Source: JACPSX01 sp035288405 [NCBI: bacterium]
Lineage (GTDB): Bacteria > JACPSX01
Length of the DNA stretch: 7,634 nt
Assembly: GCA_035288405.1 (NCBI GenBank)
Contig: DATEAK010000328.1
Location: 1 to 7,634 of the forward strand
Direction: 5' to 3'
Positions 3,134 through 7,612 of this stretch are shown here, in pieces. The position numbers and the translations under genes were made by a program. The notes under the pieces were generated by a model, which saw only the letters and a program-made list of their open reading frames with translations, did no database searches and had not been told where the DNA came from. Numbering within the stretch: position 1 is the first letter of the stretch; every line of letters starts with the position of its first letter.

Positions 3134-4057
3134 ATGGCTGCCGAAAAACTGGTTGGTTCCGTCAACAAGACCCTCGCGATTCTAAGCGCCTTTACCCGGG
3201 ACAAGATGGAGCGTGGGGTCAGTGAACTGAGCCGAGAGCTGGGACTCCACAAGGCGACGGTGCATCATATTCTGAAAGATCTGGAGCGCTGGTCTTTCGT
3301 GCAGCAGGATGAAAAGACTCAAAAATACCGTCTGGGAATGCGGCTCCTGGAGCTGGGAGATCTCGTCCGCGGGGATTCCGATCTCATCCGGAACAGCCAG
3401 TCCTTCTTGAATGAGCTCGGCAGGAAGACCGGAGGGACCGTGACTCTAAGGGTTCTGGAGAGGGACGGCTTGTTGGTCCTGGCCAAAGCGGAGAGCGTGC
3501 ACAGCCTGAAAGTCACCTATGATGTCGGTTCCCGCCTTCCTTGCAACTTTGGCGCTTCGGGAAAACTACTCCTGGCTTTCTTGCCGGTCAAGGAGTTTCG
3601 GAGGCTGGCCAGGGAGGGAAAGATCAAGAAGCTGACTCCCCGGACGGTGGTCGATCCCCGGGAGCTTGAACAGGAGTTTGAGAAAATCCGCCGCCGCGGT
3701 TATGCCTTTAGCAGCGAGCAAGCCATCAGCGGAGCTCGCGGGGTGGCGGCTCCCATACGGGACCGGCTCGGCATTGTGGTGGCGGCTCTCGGTATCAGCA
3801 TGCCGATAAGCCTCCTCCCGCAAAATAAAGTTCCGGAGATCAGCCGTGAGATTCTTGAAACTGCAGACGCAATCTCCACCCGCCTGGGCTACAGGCTACA
3901 GATCGATGAAGAGCGGATGGATAGAGGAGCAAGGGATGGCGACCGAAGAGCTGCGGCACGGAAAAGAGTGAGTCCGGAATTTGATGATCCGGGTGGGCCT
4001 CTACGACTCACTCATGTAAAAAGGAGGTATAATTCAACTCAACAATTGATGCCCTAG
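3134..4057 (+). CDS. IclR-family transcriptional regulator with a C-terminal extension
   Basis: From ATG 3134 the product has 307 residues. Residues 8-70 form the winged helix-turn-helix: VNKTLAILSAF, then the HTH ELSRELGLHKATVHHILKDL at 31-50, then a wing ending KYRLGMRLLELG. Residues 85-255 match the IclR effector domain, including GASGKLLLAFLP (140-151) and RRRGYAFSSEQAISGARGVAAPI (187-209). Family members bind small aromatic or organic acids and repress or activate adjacent catabolic genes. The frame is open further upstream to 3011, but ATG 3134 has an AAGGG site 9 nt away, gives the usual short N-terminus and lies downstream of a good promoter. The family usually ends near LGYR (about residue 254). 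About 50 further basic, low-similarity residues follow, probably from loss of an earlier stop. The amidohydrolase operon 53 bp downstream is the likely target. Confidence 0.92.
   Translation: MAAEKLVGSVNKTLAILSAFTRDKMERGVSELSRELGLHKATVHHILKDLERWSFVQQDEKTQKYRLGMRLLELGDLVRGDSDLIRNSQSFLNELGRKTGGTVTLRVLERDGLLVLAKAESVHSLKVTYDVGSRLPCNFGASGKLLLAFLPVKEFRRLAREGKIKKLTPRTVVDPRELEQEFEKIRRRGYAFSSEQAISGARGVAAPIRDRLGIVVAALGISMPISLLPQNKVPEISREILETADAISTRLGYRLQIDEERMDRGARDGDRRAAARKRVSPEFDDPGGPLRLTHVKRRYNSTQQLMP
4028..4033 (+). promoter_or_regulatory. Possible -10 box for the amidohydrolase-Rieske operon
   Basis: TATAAT lies 78 nt upstream of the amidohydrolase ATG, inside the extended C-terminal codons of the IclR gene. 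No -35 match is visible at 16-18 nt spacing, so if functional it would need an activator, which some IclR proteins are. It directly follows AAGGAGGT (4021-4028), a perfect Shine-Dalgarno sequence that has no usable start codon at normal distance. Confidence 0.25.
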
Positions 4058-4089: not shown

Positions 4090-4110
4090 CCAATAAAGAG
4101 AGGGGGATTT

Positions 4111-5166
4111 ATGGCAGTCAGCGGTTTTACCGTCATTGACACGGATGCGCATTATCTCGAGTCTTTCCAGGAAGTCGCCAAGTACATGGAGGAGCCTTAT
4201 AAGTCACGGCTCCTCAAGTCCGCCCATAGATTGATTCCAACCACAACCGGGGACCGCTTCCTGGAAGGGAGAATTCGCCGCGACGAAGTCTCCTATCCCC
4301 AGAAACCCATGACGCCTGACGAAATTCCGGCGGCCCAGAAGCGCCTCGGGGTGGATGTCTCGGTCATCCTGCCGAACAATCTACTGGAGCTCGGCAAGTT
4401 TCCCATCAAGAACATGGCTTTAGCTCTCTGCCAGGGGTTTAATGACTACATGCTGGACCAGATTGTGGATCCCAAGAGGGGGATCTACACGATGGTCTTT
4501 GTTCCGCTCCTGGATCCTCCCGAGTCCGCTAAGCTGATCGACCGGGTGGGCAAGCACCCCGGTGTATCCGCCGTCTGCTTTATCAGCGCCAACGTGGAGC
4601 CTCCGCTGGGGGACACGTTCTACAATCCCGTCTACGAGGCGGCGCAGCGCAACGGGCTTCCCATCGTCTATCACAGCGCGGGCTCGGACCTGCATGACTT
4701 CTTCGTGAGAGGGTTTCAGACTTTTGCGGAGACCCACTCCCTGGGATTTGTTTTCTGGAATTACATTCACATGACCAGTGTCGTCATGGAAGGGATTCCG
4801 GAGCGTTTCCCCGGGATTAAGTTTGCGTTTCAAGAGTCCGGGATCTTCTGGGTTCCCCAGCTCATGTACCGCTTGGACAATGCCTACATGAAGCGGCGCT
4901 CCGAGTCGCCGCTCTTGAAGAAACTGCCCAGCGAGTACATACGGGAATTTCGGTTTGGCACCCAGCCCCTGGAATCTCCCAAGAACATGGATCATCTTAA
5001 GTACGCCTTTGAGATGGTGGATGCGGAAAATACATTAATGTTTTCCACCGACTATCCTCATTGGGATTTTGATCCCCCTTCCACGATTACCGACTTGCCC
5101 TTTCTGAGTCACAAGGCGAAGACGCGAATTCTTAGTGAAAATGCCGAGAACTTTTTCCGGTTTTAA
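4111..5166 (+). CDS. Amidohydrolase-family protein (Amidohydrolase_2 / ACMSD-like TIM barrel)
   Basis: The 351-residue soluble protein has the layout of PF04909 metal-dependent hydrolases and decarboxylases. VIDTDAHYLE (residues 8-17) supplies the first strand with Asp10, Asp12 and His14 in place of the more usual HxH. IVYHSAG (185-191) gives His188. FAFQESGIFWVP (238-249) carries Glu242 where ACMSD-type enzymes have a catalytic histidine. MFSTDYPHWD (310-319) gives Asp314, the conserved barrel-end aspartate. IHMTSVVMEGIPERFPGIK (219-237) is the family's conserved 'sGvler.P.lk' region. There is no signal peptide. Family members hydrolyse C-N bonds or decarboxylate/hydrate aromatic acids; which applies cannot be read here. 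It lies 12 bp upstream of the Rieske gene, clearly in an operon. The ATG has GAGAGGGGGA just upstream. Confidence 0.9.
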   Translation: MAVSGFTVIDTDAHYLESFQEVAKYMEEPYKSRLLKSAHRLIPTTTGDRFLEGRIRRDEVSYPQKPMTPDEIPAAQKRLGVDVSVILPNNLLELGKFPIKNMALALCQGFNDYMLDQIVDPKRGIYTMVFVPLLDPPESAKLIDRVGKHPGVSAVCFISANVEPPLGDTFYNPVYEAAQRNGLPIVYHSAGSDLHDFFVRGFQTFAETHSLGFVFWNYIHMTSVVMEGIPERFPGIKFAFQESGIFWVPQLMYRLDNAYMKRRSESPLLKKLPSEYIREFRFGTQPLESPKNMDHLKYAFEMVDAENTLMFSTDYPHWDFDPPSTITDLPFLSHKAKTRILSENAENFFRF

Positions 5167-5178
5167 AGGAGGGGGAAA

Positions 5179-5541
5179 ATGGCGAAACATCGAATTGCCC
5201 GGGTGGAAGAGATCCCGGCTGGTGAAAGGAAGTTGGTGGAGGCGGGAGGGAAATCCATCGGAGTTTTCAACGTGAGGGGGGAATATCACGCTCTGGAAAA
5301 TGTCTGTTGTCACCGGGGAGGGCCGGTCTGCGAGGGGAACGTGTTTGGCCGGCTGGAGTCCGAGGTGTTGCCCGACAATCGCATCCGGGAGTACTACGCC
5401 ACGGAGGGGGACGTGATCGCCTGCCCGTGGCACGGCTGGGAATACGAGATCCCGAGCGGGGAATGCCTGGCCGATCGCACCTATAAACTGCGCAAGTTCC
5501 CCGTTGTGATCGAAGAGGGAGCCGTTTGGGTAGTCGTGTAA
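5179..5541 (+). CDS. Rieske [2Fe-2S] ferredoxin-like protein with a long inter-motif insertion
   Basis: This 120-residue single-domain protein has both Rieske motifs: Cys43-x-His45 (in VCCHRGGP) and Cys82-x-x-His85 (in CPWHGW). Together they ligate a [2Fe-2S] cluster through two cysteines and two histidines. About 36 residues separate the two motifs. Ordinary Rieske ferredoxins have roughly 15-20, so there is an insertion around residues 52-79 (acidic and arginine-containing, starting EGNVFGRLE). C-terminal residues 86-120 form the closing strands expected of the fold. No signal or transmembrane segment is seen, so it is cytosolic. It follows the amidohydrolase by 12 bp with a strong GGAGG site 6 nt before its ATG. 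The pairing implies electron transfer or cluster-mediated sensing linked to the amidohydrolase pathway, but no oxygenase or reductase is in view. Confidence 0.92.
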   Translation: MAKHRIARVEEIPAGERKLVEAGGKSIGVFNVRGEYHALENVCCHRGGPVCEGNVFGRLESEVLPDNRIREYYATEGDVIACPWHGWEYEIPSGECLADRTYKLRKFPVVIEEGAVWVVV

Positions 5542-5608
5542 TCTGTAGTGGATCTCCCCACCCCATCTCTTTGCGGTAGTGACACGTCGGCGAAGTGCTC
5601 GGGGGTGC

Positions 5609-5620
5609 GCCCCTTGGGGC
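5609..5620 (+). promoter_or_regulatory. Short GC hairpin overlapping the yqeC ribosome-binding region
   Basis: GCCCC and GGGGC are separated by only TT and end 2 nt before the ATG at 5623. The right arm is also the only Shine-Dalgarno-like sequence. If the RNA folds (with a loop wider than TT), it could lower initiation. It may be only a by-product of the GC-rich junction. Confidence 0.2.
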
Positions 5621-5622
5621 TG

Positions 5623-6342
5623 ATGATGGAAGCCAAGAGCAAATTCTTATCCTCCAATTCCCTTTTAGGGGCCATTGGGCCGAAGTACCCCGAGATCATC
5701 GCTCTCACCGGGGCGGGCGGCAAGACGAGCACCATGCTGCAACTCGCGCGGGCGGCGTATGCCGCGGGCATGGGGGTGCTGGTAACGGTAACAACGAAAA
5801 TCTACGAGTCGGATGCGGCCAGGTTCGGGCCGCTCGTGTATCGCGCGGAAGAACTCCCCGGCAAACGCCTCGCCGTCTATGTCGCCGGCAAGGACGAGTC
5901 GACGGGCAAACTGATCGGCATCGATCCGGATGCGATTCCGGACGGCTTTGACCTCGTGCTGGTGGAGGCCGACGGATCGGCCGGCAAGCCGCTGACGGCT
6001 CCGAAAGCGCACGAGCCGGTCATTCCACCATCGGCCACCACCGTTCTCGCCGTCGCTGGGCTGGACGCGCTGGGGCAACCGGTACGCGCGATGCACCGGC
6101 CGGAAGTCATCTCGGAGCTGACCGGCGCGAGTCCGGACGCCGCCGTGAGCGCCGAAGTGATAGCCGCGGTTCTGTCGCACCCGCGTGGCAACACCAAGGG
6201 CAGGCCGGCCCATGCGCGCGTCCTCTACGTTCTCAACAAGGCTGACGACGATGAGCGACTTCATCGAGCAATCGCCATCGCTGATCTCCTTGCAGGTCCT
6301 GTGCTGGTGACCTCGCACGGCCAGGTGCGCTGGTCAAAGTAG
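5623..6342 (+). CDS. yqeC: YqeC-type selenium-dependent hydroxylase accessory protein (P-loop)
   Basis: From the ATG at 5623 the product has 239 residues. The Walker A loop GAGGKTS is at 30-36 after IIALT. LVEADGSAGKPLTAPKAHEPVIP (113-135) is the hallmark of the YqeC family, and VLNKADDD (203-210) resembles a GTPase-like NKxD motif. YqeC proteins are found with selenium-dependent molybdenum hydroxylases and are thought to help assemble their cofactor; the biochemical reaction is not well established. No hydroxylase, selD or xdhC gene is present here. The open frame extends up to a GTG at 5548, but the extra 25 residues look unlike the family, and family proteins begin just before 'LL.alg...viaLtGAGGKT'. 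The gene is visibly richer in G+C than its neighbours and is followed by a broken mocA start, suggesting a transferred or rearranged block. Confidence 0.85.
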   Translation: MMEAKSKFLSSNSLLGAIGPKYPEIIALTGAGGKTSTMLQLARAAYAAGMGVLVTVTTKIYESDAARFGPLVYRAEELPGKRLAVYVAGKDESTGKLIGIDPDAIPDGFDLVLVEADGSAGKPLTAPKAHEPVIPPSATTVLAVAGLDALGQPVRAMHRPEVISELTGASPDAAVSAEVIAAVLSHPRGNTKGRPAHARVLYVLNKADDDERLHRAIAIADLLAGPVLVTSHGQVRWSK

Positions 6343-6359: not shown

Positions 6360-6470
6360 ATGATCTCCGGCATCATCCTGGCTGTAGGCGAGTCGCTCCC
6401 TCGTGGTCCAAGAGGGACATCGGACGCTGCCTTCATGATTTTTCTTGACACAAGGGTGAAAGAATGTTGA
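6360..6470 (+). pseudogene. mocA: Truncated start of a MocA-like molybdenum cofactor nucleotidyltransferase
   Basis: An ATG 17 bp after the yqeC stop opens a 36-residue frame beginning MISGIILAVGES. This matches the N-terminus of MocA/MobA-type nucleotidyltransferases ('MisgIILAAGeSsRMG.pK'), in which this glycine-rich loop binds the nucleotide. Similarity stops after about residue 12. There is no RMGxxK motif, and the rest (LPRGPRGTSDAAF onwards) is unrelated before a TGA at 6468-6470. Full proteins are about 200 residues. A mocA-like gene directly after yqeC is a known arrangement in selenium-hydroxylase gene clusters, which supports the identity. The break near 6396 marks a deletion or recombination point. 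The translated stub overlaps the next gene's longest possible start by 7 bp. Confidence 0.6.
6397..6417. repeat. Inverted repeat at the mocA break point
   Basis: TCCCTC (6397-6402) and GAGGGA (6412-6417) can form a 6-bp stem with a 9-nt loop, exactly where similarity to MocA ends. The octamer AGAGGGAC at 6411-6418 also occurs at 6341-6348, beside the yqeC stop, as a direct repeat 70 bp apart. These short repeats may relate to the rearrangement. No T-tract follows, so a terminator is not supported. Confidence 0.3.
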
Positions 6471-6493
6471 AAGAAATTATCGTGAGGGTACTA

Positions 6494-7612
6494 ATGAAAT
6501 ACTCTATGCACCGCAACGTACCTTTTTTTCTTGTCCTGGCCTTCTCTCTGCTCTTCTTTTGGGGATGTGCTGACGCCGGCCCGCGGGAATTCCCTCCAGA
6601 ACGTTCGGGAGGCGCCTCCAGGAGTGGCTCTGCCGGGAAAATCACTTATATCGATGTCCACGCTCACCCGATGGGAAATATCAGATCCGCGGGAGGGATG
6701 CCGGAGGAGGACTTTCAAGGGGCCGCCCGGGCCGCCCTGGCTGCCATGGATCGGATGGGCATAGCGAAAACCATCCTCATGCCCTTTCCTTTTTTTCCGA
6801 ACCTGCCCGGTATCTTCGATATCGATGAGCTGGTCTCCCGGGTGGGGACGCAATCGGGCCGTTTTGCCTTTCTCGGAGGAGGCGGCACGCTGAATATCAT
6901 GGTTCTCCAAGCCTTCCGGGAAGGGAAGACGGACGCGGAACTGCGGAGTCGGTTCGAGGAGAAAGCTCTCCAGATCCTTTCCAAAGGTGCCGTGGGCTTC
7001 GGGGAAATGATGGCGGAACATGTCTCCCTCGGACCCGACCACTCGTATGGGGCGGTCCCTCCGGATCACCCGCTCCTCTTGCTCCTGGCCGACATCGCCG
7101 CCCGATACGATGTGCCGATCGACCTCCACATGGAGGCGGTTCCCGAGGAGATGCCCCTGCCTGAGGGTTTGAGGTCGCCGCCAAACCCTGCTTCACTGCA
7201 CGCCAACATCCCCGCCTTCGAGAGACTGCTGTCCCATAATCCGAAAGCGAAAATCATCTGGGCTCACGCCGGCTGGGATCAAACGGGGCGCAGGACCACC
7301 GCCTTGATGGCGGACCTCCTCCAGAGACATTCGAATCTCTACATGAGCATCAAGATCGGGAGGGACAGCCGACCCGAAAACAGGCCCATGAATTCCCCAG
7401 GGGAAATAAGGCCCGAGTGGCTTGCTCTGATCCGGGCGTTCCCGGACAGATTTCTTATCGGCAGCGACCAGTTTTACCTCTCCCCAAGAGCAGCGCAGCG
7501 ATTTCCCCAAAGAACGGAAGTGGTAAACGAGTTTCTCTCCGTTCTCCCTGCAGAACTGGCCCGCAAGGTGGGGTACGAGAATCCGGTTCGCCTCTTCAAG
7601 CTGGAAAAGTAA
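6494..7612 (+). CDS. Exported amidohydrolase-family protein, possible lipoprotein
   Basis: From ATG 6494 the product has 372 residues. Residues 1-25 (MKYSMHRN, then a Phe/Leu-rich core ending LFFWGC) form a signal sequence. Cys25 after Gly could be lipidated, but Phe and Trp at -3 and -2 make a poor lipobox. A charged linker of about 24 residues follows, then an Amidohydrolase_2-type barrel: IDVHAHP (53-59; Asp54, His56, His58), GFGEM (168-172; Glu171), IDLHME (209-214; His212), WAHAGWD (256-262; His258) and IGSDQFY (322-328; Asp325). These are the expected metal and catalytic residues, so the enzyme looks intact. The substrate is unknown. The start at 6494 has GAGGG 5 nt upstream. The ATG at 6464 would add ten residues and lacks as good a site. 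It resembles the upstream 351-residue amidohydrolase only at the superfamily level. Confidence 0.86.
   Translation: MKYSMHRNVPFFLVLAFSLLFFWGCADAGPREFPPERSGGASRSGSAGKITYIDVHAHPMGNIRSAGGMPEEDFQGAARAALAAMDRMGIAKTILMPFPFFPNLPGIFDIDELVSRVGTQSGRFAFLGGGGTLNIMVLQAFREGKTDAELRSRFEEKALQILSKGAVGFGEMMAEHVSLGPDHSYGAVPPDHPLLLLLADIAARYDVPIDLHMEAVPEEMPLPEGLRSPPNPASLHANIPAFERLLSHNPKAKIIWAHAGWDQTGRRTTALMADLLQRHSNLYMSIKIGRDSRPENRPMNSPGEIRPEWLALIRAFPDRFLIGSDQFYLSPRAAQRFPQRTEVVNEFLSVLPAELARKVGYENPVRLFKLEK

What the first reader, a model, noticed from the sequence alone, without database searches (positions are those of the whole stretch)
4111..5541. Tight amidohydrolase plus long-insert Rieske operon behind an IclR regulator
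A PF04909-type amidohydrolase and a single-domain Rieske protein are 12 bp apart with strong ribosome-binding sites. Yet there is no oxygenase large subunit or ferredoxin reductase, the normal partners of a Rieske protein. The Rieske protein has about 36 residues between its CxH and CxxH motifs, about twice the usual number. A metal hydrolase paired with a redox cluster suggests an uncharacterised enzyme pair, with the cluster as electron donor, activity switch or oxygen sensor. This is the best candidate in the window for an undescribed system.
Basis: partly seen in the sequence, partly recalled or inferred. Interest (0 to 1): 0.6.

Follow-up and report, generated by a model that had tools for sequence, protein, structure and literature searches.

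The report
Amidohydrolase-fold monooxygenase with its Rieske ferredoxin
A two-gene unit pairs an enzyme that looks like a hydrolase but carries the metal-binding residues of a recently described family of oxygen-activating enzymes with the small iron-sulfur protein that most likely feeds it electrons; this kind of pair is already known, and this copy belongs to a less studied branch.

Summary
In detail: a PF04909 protein (4111-5166) and a single-domain Rieske protein (5179-5541) lie 12 bp apart, with 36 residues between the Rieske cluster motifs. The "missing oxygenase" is not missing: the amidohydrolase-fold protein is itself the predicted oxygenase. Its best solved matches by sequence and fold are the "amidohydrolase-related dinuclear oxygenases" (AROs: SfbO, AibH2, three orphans), and the six residues that bind the Mn/Fe or Fe2 centre in AibH2 are present. 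AROs were found in print (PMC10811679) by this same PF04909-plus-small-Rieske adjacency. The long Rieske loop is usual for ARO partners: 62 of 64 Rieske proteins within 2.5 kb of an ARO-like gene (same strand) have 32-37 residues there; the 2 exceptions and 10 unlinked Rieske proteins have 15-21. So this is a new member of a known kind, probably a catabolic monooxygenase of unknown substrate. Its branch of the ARO tree holds none of the five solved AROs placed in it. A sister clade encodes an unnamed third protein of about 100 residues between the two genes. No dedicated reductase was found.

The parts
4111..5166 (+). PF04909 amidohydrolase-fold protein, predicted dinuclear (Mn/Fe or Fe2) monooxygenase of the ARO family
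   Evidence: PF04909; best PDB matches 8sm7 E 2.5e-55, 8sm6/SfbO 8.9e-43, 8sm9, 8sm8, AibH2 1e-36; AF2 model closest to 8sm7 (Z 35.3, 2.6 A over 316) and the other AROs
4144..4152 (+). metal ligands D12 and H14 (D-x-H), taken as the equivalents of AibH2 D25 and H27
   Evidence: aligned with the D-x-H of 8sm7, 8sm8 and 8sm9 (the printed AibH2 alignment starts further on); ligand list from PMC7782822 section 8
4672..4674 (+). metal ligand H188, matching AibH2 H211
   Evidence: alignment with AibH2
4834..4836 (+). metal ligand E242, matching AibH2 E265
   Evidence: alignment with AibH2; the 7 mononuclear-type sequences met here have His at this column
5050..5067 (+). D314-Y-P-H317-W-D319: two metal ligands (AibH2 D337, H340) and the second-sphere Asp (AibH2 D342)
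   Evidence: alignment with AibH2; role of D342 from PMC10401708
5179..5541 (+). single-domain Rieske [2Fe-2S] ferredoxin, predicted electron donor to the ARO
   Evidence: PF00355; AF2 pLDDT 93.5; nearest solved folds are ferredoxins of aromatic dioxygenases (2qpz Z 17.4, 1.8 A over 100)
5350..5403 (+). long insert (about residues 58-75) between the two cluster-binding motifs, modelled as a beta hairpin (strands 59-63 and 69-73)
   Evidence: residues 54-74 have no counterpart in 1fqt; long spacing in 62 of 64 Rieske proteins within 2.5 kb of an ARO-like gene
5167..5175 (+). ribosome-binding site of the Rieske gene, in the 12-bp gap
   Evidence: sequence
4100..4106 (+). ribosome-binding site of the ARO gene
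   Evidence: sequence
3134..4057 (+). IclR-family regulator, probably of this or the ancestral larger unit; it runs 31 codons past the end of its L001 counterpart
   Evidence: PF01614 and PF09339; synteny
3985..4020 (+). 36-bp match (92%) to the sequence just upstream of the ARO in L001; with the junction at 3957 it marks a probable 4.6-kb deletion
   Evidence: blastn and sequence

Best explanation
The pair is a multicomponent monooxygenase of the ARO type. The Rieske ferredoxin takes single electrons from an unidentified, unlinked reductase and passes them to a dinuclear Mn/Fe or Fe2 centre held by D12, H14, H188, E242, D314 and H317 in the TIM barrel of the amidohydrolase-fold protein. The reduced centre binds O2 and hydroxylates a C-H bond of an unknown small molecule, as in AibH1H2 and SfbO. 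The long beta-hairpin insert of the Rieske protein is a mark of ARO-partner ferredoxins and probably helps it recognise the barrel. Shown here: genes, ligand residues by alignment, predicted fold, insert, conserved pairing. Inferred: metal content, electron transfer, O2 chemistry, docking role of the insert, control by IclR, a catabolic role.
For: Best solved relatives are AROs by sequence and by model: ranks 1-10 are 8sm7, SfbO, 8sm8, 8sm9 and AibH1H2 chains, Z 30.9-35.3; then 4dzi, a structural-genomics amidohydrolase, 29.4, PtmU3 29.3, DitZ 27.3, LigW2 27.0. All six ligands and the second-sphere Asp are present. Of 99 homologues with six ligands and E < 1e-20, 68 have a same-strand long-insert Rieske within 1.5 kb, against 0 of 7 mononuclear-type (His at 242) homologues, 6 of these 7 with a flank cut. 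62 of 64 Rieske proteins within 2.5 kb of an ARO-like gene, same strand, have spacing 32-37, including the one beside a 77% AibH2 homologue on a Rhodococcus plasmid (33). All 5 loci returned by the Rieske query have a six-ligand ARO. Mirror distances r = 0.62. Literature: PMC10811679 defined AROs by this adjacency and showed four candidates hold redox-active dinuclear iron; [quoted passage not shown]
Against: I found no biochemistry for this protein or its branch in the papers searched; the five solved AROs placed on the tree all lie outside its clade. No reductase was recognised in the window; in the relative's MAG G001 the only PF00175 hit is next to a dihydroorotate dehydrogenase and looks like its PyrK partner, with none for PF14759. 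There is no AibH1-like second subunit. 31 of 99 strong six-ligand homologues have no same-strand Rieske within 1.5 kb, 8 of them with a flank cut. 18 of 19 weaker homologues (E >= 1e-20) with six ligands also have no Rieske nearby, 17 with a flank cut, so the six-residue pattern alone does not prove a Rieske-fed oxygenase. The AF2 model of the ARO is only moderately confident (pLDDT 76.4) and is poor at residues 192-211 and 316-320, at or near the metal site.
Confidence: 0.88

Rival explanations
1. A mononuclear metal hydrolase or decarboxylase (LigW/ACMSD-like PF04909) that merely sits beside an unrelated ferredoxin.
For: PF04909 contains such enzymes, and LigW and ACMSD appear as weaker hits.
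Against: The window protein has D at residue 12 and E at 242, where the 7 mononuclear-type sequences met here have another residue and His, plus H317; closer sequence and fold matches are AROs; recurrent pairing with a long-insert Rieske.
Confidence: 0.05
2. A metal hydrolase whose activity is switched by the redox state of the Rieske cluster, or an oxygen sensor (a reading offered by the first reader).
For: Only that a metal enzyme and a redox protein are paired.
Against: The metal site is that of an oxygenase; for the homologous AibH1H2GF the hydroxylation needed all four proteins and the flow NADH to AibF to AibG to AibH1H2 was assigned (PMC7782822); neighbours in relatives include transporters, aldehyde dehydrogenases and reductases, which fits catabolism.
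Confidence: 0.03
3. An ARO-fold protein in a branch that has changed function (for example an O2-dependent oxidase or dealkylase rather than a hydroxylase) but still uses the dinuclear centre and the Rieske donor.
For: The window's clade is split from all five solved AROs in the tree by a well-supported branch (100/99); aldehyde dehydrogenase genes lie close by in four relatives of this clade (L043, L118, L127; L046), which would fit release of an aldehyde.
Against: No direct evidence on the reaction. SfbO itself starts an N-dealkylation, proposed to begin by C-H hydroxylation (PMC10811679), so this is barely distinct from the main reading.
Confidence: 0.2

Closest known systems
SfbO and the orphan AROs 8SM7, 8SM8, 8SM9 (PMC10811679)
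   Same: PF04909 barrel, six ligands, neighbouring small Rieske ferredoxin; 8SM7 is the best sequence and fold match
   Different: Lie in another clade of the ARO tree; 26-31% identity on structural alignment; native substrates were not known there either
AibH1H2GF, the 2-aminoisobutyrate monooxygenase of Rhodococcus wratislaviensis (PMC7782822, PMC10401708)
   Same: Same ligands and order in AibH2; dedicated Rieske ferredoxin AibG (its sequence was not seen); a 77% AibH2 homologue on a Rhodococcus plasmid has a Rieske with a long insert (33)
   Different: The window has no AibH1-like subunit and no AibF-like reductase; IclR instead of the LysR-type AibR
PtmU3, diiron hydroxylase of platensimycin biosynthesis (cited in PMC7782822 and PMC10811679; the primary paper was not read)
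   Same: ARO fold and dinuclear site (fold match 6omp Z 29.3)
   Different: Weaker match: E 5.4e-9 and 18% identity on structural alignment
Rieske ferredoxins of aromatic dioxygenases (naphthalene, toluene, biphenyl, carbazole)
   Same: Fold and cluster motifs (Z 16-17)
   Different: About 100 of 120 residues align, leaving the insert unmatched; they work with Rieske oxygenase alpha subunits, not with a PF04909 protein (established knowledge)

Membership tests
Amidohydrolase-related dinuclear oxygenases (ARO) | PF04909 TIM-barrel protein | tested here: met
   Pfam 94.9 bits over a 26.4 cut-off; model pTM 0.82, top fold matches are AROs
Amidohydrolase-related dinuclear oxygenases (ARO) | six dinuclear ligands (AibH2 D25, H27, H211, E265, D337, H340) | tested here: met
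   D12, H14, H188, E242, D314, H317 by alignment
Amidohydrolase-related dinuclear oxygenases (ARO) | small Rieske protein in the same transcriptional unit (the criterion used in PMC10811679) | tested here: met
   12-bp gap, same strand; co-transcription itself not tested
Amidohydrolase-related dinuclear oxygenases (ARO) | redox-active Fe2 or Mn/Fe cofactor and O2-dependent C-H hydroxylation | not testable with these tools
   needs purified protein
AibH1H2GF-type three-component system | second, non-catalytic PF04909 subunit (AibH1-like) | tested here: not met
   Only one ARO-like ORF in the unit. The other PF04909 ORF (6464-7612) has a lipoprotein-like N-terminus and an H-x-H start motif (both motif names recalled)
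AibH1H2GF-type three-component system | dedicated ferredoxin:NAD+ reductase (AibF) | tested here: inconclusive
   Not among the 8 window ORFs scanned. In G001 PF00175 gives one hit, beside a dihydroorotate dehydrogenase, and PF14759 none; a MAG can miss genes
Classical Rieske non-heme iron oxygenase system | Rieske-plus-catalytic-domain alpha subunit | tested here: not met
   No such ORF among the 8 window ORFs scanned; the Rieske is a stand-alone 120-aa protein
Mononuclear PF04909 decarboxylases/hydrolases | no Asp at the D12 position and His at the E242 position (the pattern of the 7 such homologues; H-x-H start recalled as typical) | tested here: not met
   Window has D-x-H and E242
NirD small subunit of nitrite reductase | NCBIfam TIGR02378 above its cut-off | tested here: not met
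   54 bits against a cut-off of 74.65

The most novel reading that the evidence does not exclude
The window is a member of a second, untested deep branch of the ARO family in which electron delivery is rebuilt: a ferredoxin with one of the longest hairpins (35-37 residues between motifs throughout its 16-row clade), no dedicated reductase nearby, and in the sister clade an unnamed ~100-residue third protein that acts as a coupling component, as MmoB or TmoD do in diiron monooxygenases. The branch would oxidise a substrate class not yet known for AROs.
Probability: 0.3. Interest if true: 0.5.

Novelty: new member of a known kind. Interest (0 to 1): 0.28.

Why it matters
It shows that an 'amidohydrolase plus orphan Rieske' annotation should be read as a probable oxygenase with its ferredoxin. 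It adds a cheap sequence mark for such systems (32-37 residues between the cluster motifs), which I did not see described in the parts read of PMC10811679, PMC10401708 and PMC7782822. It also points to a clade of AROs, found here in haloarchaea, Chloroflexota, Bacillota, Alphaproteobacteria and a Tectomicrobia MAG, with no solved member among the five placed in the tree.

Tried and rejected
Rejected: an undescribed enzyme pair (published as AROs); a nitrite reductase small subunit (below cut-off); linkage to the downstream YqeC gene as part of the unit (in L001 YqeC lies 2.4 kb further on, with other ORFs between); the second PF04909 ORF as partner subunit. A phylum search around G001 returned only G001 itself. 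The promoter/terminator scan gave counts within what its shuffles give. A spacing script printed no Rieske rows because its filter was too strict; searches replaced it. A paper search for 'TruffO', the name in PDB titles, showed no paper with that word among the 15 listed of 40.

Counting limits. The first count held nested duplicates; removes them (L128-L131 and L030) and is the one quoted. L002-L005 were found through the Rieske query, so their pairing is not independent in the 68 of 99. The Rieske profile was built from hits of the window protein and missed three Rieske proteins of G001, added by hand (spacing 15, 15, 21). Of the 7 unlinked Rieske proteins, five are one near-identical 597-647-aa kind of protein in L051-L055. 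Loci L012-L041 carry only about 1.5-kb flanks. The plasmid regions read (15 of the 50 hits listed) were chosen by hand. 60 regions were fetched from 32 of the 34 matching genomes among 151 searched, mostly the strongest matches. The mirror-distance test does not remove species relatedness. The tree has a midpoint root and leaves out PtmU3 and DitZ; the five PDB AROs are in it only as the parts printed.

Full report
WHAT IS THERE. The window codes on the + strand for an IclR regulator (3134-4057), a PF04909 protein (4111-5166), a Rieske protein (5179-5541), a YqeC-like protein and a second PF04909 protein with a lipoprotein-like start; on the - strand for a gamma-glutamyltransferase, a small ORF and the start of a PaaK-like CoA ligase. 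The PF04909 and Rieske genes are 12 bp apart with good ribosome-binding sites. The spacing of 36 residues between the cluster motifs is correct.

WHAT THE AMIDOHYDROLASE IS. Its five best solved matches are 8sm7, 8sm6 (SfbO), 8sm9, 8sm8 and 6m1w_B (AibH2), E 2.5e-55 to 1e-36. PMC10811679 (parts 1 and 2 of 3 of the text read) names these 'amidohydrolase-related dinuclear oxygenases' (AROs). In AibH2 the two metals are held by D25, H27, H211, E265, D337 and H340 (PMC7782822 section 8), and D342 supports catalysis (passages of PMC10401708). The window protein has D12, H14, H188, E242, D314, H317 and D319 at these places: the last five are aligned directly to AibH2, the first two to the D-x-H of 8sm7, 8sm8 and 8sm9. 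The AF2 model (pLDDT 76.4, weak at 40-63, 192-211 and 316-320) is closest to 8sm7 (Z 35.3, 2.6 A over 316) and then to SfbO, 8sm8, 8sm9 and AibH1H2 chains (Z 30.9-33.7); next come the structural-genomics amidohydrolase 4dzi (29.4), PtmU3 (29.3), DitZ (27.3) and the decarboxylase LigW2 (27.0).

WHAT THE RIESKE PROTEIN IS. Its model (pLDDT 93.5) is a ferredoxin of the naphthalene, toluene and biphenyl dioxygenase kind (Z 16-17, about 100 of 120 residues aligned). The extra stretch forms a beta hairpin (strands 59-63 and 69-73). It is not odd for its kind: of 71 Rieske proteins found in the loci gathered here, 64 lie within 2.5 kb of an ARO-like gene on the same strand, and 62 of these have 32-37 residues between the motifs. 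The other two have 16 (L096, L124) and lie in loci that also hold a long one beside the ARO-like gene (for L124, for L096). The 7 not so linked all have 16, and three more Rieske proteins of G001 that my profile missed have 15, 15 and 21. The Rieske next to a 77% AibH2 homologue on a Rhodococcus plasmid, followed by a PDR/VanB-type reductase, has 33. The insert is therefore best read as a mark of ARO-partner ferredoxins. Its role in docking is my inference.

IS THE PAIRING RANDOM? A search with the Rieske protein alone returned 5 loci, and all 5 have a six-ligand ARO within 1.2 kb on the same strand. Among 141 distinct ARO-like ORFs, 99 have all six ligands and E < 1e-20. Of these, 68 have a same-strand, long-insert Rieske within 1.5 kb; 5 have only a 597-647-aa Rieske-motif protein on the other strand; 26 have none, 8 of them with a cut flank. 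Of 7 mononuclear-type homologues (His at 242) none has a Rieske, but 6 of the 7 have a flank cut. Of 16 ORFs with altered ligands, 10 sit beside a long-insert Rieske; several of them (such as L070:4396-5523 and L003:10451-11551) lie next to a six-ligand ARO and look like AibH1-type second subunits. Of 19 weaker six-ligand homologues, 1 has a Rieske and 17 of the other 18 have a flank cut. Distances of 46 non-redundant ARO/Rieske pairs correlate at r = 0.62; 0 of 5000 permutations reach this and the highest is 0.25. In 14 of 15 plasmid regions read, a small Rieske gene lies within the 5-6 kb flank of the ARO gene; the exception is L123. PMC10401708 section 7 gives 90% for 555 AibH2-like proteins.

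NEIGHBOURS. In these 15 regions an IclR gene occurs in 4 (L043, L045, L118, L120), an aldehyde dehydrogenase in 3 (L043, L118, L127) and a PDR/VanB reductase in 4 (L044, L116, L121, L126); various transporters occur. Another relative, L046, has an aldehyde dehydrogenase between ARO and Rieske (PF00171). This fits catabolism of a small molecule, possibly with an aldehyde product; the substrate stays unknown. In L001, whose ARO is 95% and Rieske 92% identical, IclR is separated from the pair by a MoaD-like gene, a molybdopterin oxidoreductase, a 4Fe-4S protein and an NMT1-type binding protein. The window lacks about 4.6 kb there but keeps short matches to both ends, so a deletion in the window's lineage is likelier than an insertion in L001.

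WHERE IT SITS IN THE FAMILY. In a tree of 52 AROs the window falls in a 22-row clade split from a 30-row clade that holds all five PDB AROs (100/99 support). Within its clade it lies with Chloroflexota and haloarchaeal proteins; Rieske spacing is 35-37 in all 16 rows of the starred set around the window. The nearest other group is a 9-row clade (100/100) in which the order is Rieske, a small unnamed protein, then ARO. The small protein (93-123 aa in the five copies aligned) has no family match above a cut-off (6 copies scanned). In 151 genomes of L005's phylum (Chloroflexota) its profile hits 4, each time directly before an ARO (coordinates). The window has no hit to it, nor do the haloarchaeal loci gathered.

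ELECTRON SUPPLY. No reductase was recognised in the window. In L001's genome (G001) the only PF00175 hit lies beside a dihydroorotate dehydrogenase and looks like its PyrK partner, and PF14759 is absent. G001 may be incomplete. Which protein reduces the ferredoxin is open.

VERDICT. What is left of interest is the untested branch, the insert as a family mark, and the third protein of the sister clade. Papers: PMC10811679 (parts 1 and 2 of 3), PMC10401708 (outline with abstract, section 7, passages), PMC7782822 (outline with abstract, sections 7 and 8), PMC12141560 (passages); others were seen only in search listings. The MmoB/TmoD analogy and the family knowledge of decarboxylases are recalled.

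Noticed in passing
L106:3556-3927, L044:4558-4857, L119:4541-4888, L120:4503-4838, L121:4575-4856; also in L005, L048, L049, L050: An unnamed protein of about 93-123 aa is encoded between Rieske and ARO in the neighbouring clade (9 loci, one clade in the tree). In 151 Chloroflexota genomes its profile hits only 4 places, all directly before an ARO. No Pfam or NCBIfam match above a cut-off.
   Followed up: partly
window 3957-3985 and L001:1255-5900: The window lacks about 4.6 kb present in L001 (MoaD-like, molybdopterin oxidoreductase, 4Fe-4S protein, NMT1-type binding protein), with short matches to both ends left, and the IclR frame runs 31 codons past its L001 end.
   Followed up: partly
window 6464-7612: A second PF04909 protein with a lipoprotein-like N-terminus and an H-x-H start motif (motifs recalled), probably a mononuclear exported relative unrelated to the pair.
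   Followed up: no
window 5548-6342: YqeC-type selenium cofactor protein (TIGR03172) just downstream; its likely start is an internal ATG near 5620 by comparison with L001, where it lies 2.4 kb from the Rieske gene.
   Followed up: partly
L106:3083-5257 (G001:C189): The relative's genome holds a second ARO/Rieske unit, of the three-gene type, about 0.3 kb upstream of an Rrf2 regulator and genes with SufBD and ABC domains, a Suf-type iron-sulfur assembly cluster.
   Followed up: partly
L051-L055: Five Chloroflexota AROs with all six ligands have no long-insert Rieske nearby but a 597-647-aa Rieske-motif protein (spacing 16) on the opposite strand within 0.4 kb.
   Followed up: no
L002:9210-14288: Peribacillus cavernae has a unit with two long-insert Rieske genes flanking three ARO-like genes behind an IclR-like regulator (regulator named from its sequence).
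   Followed up: no
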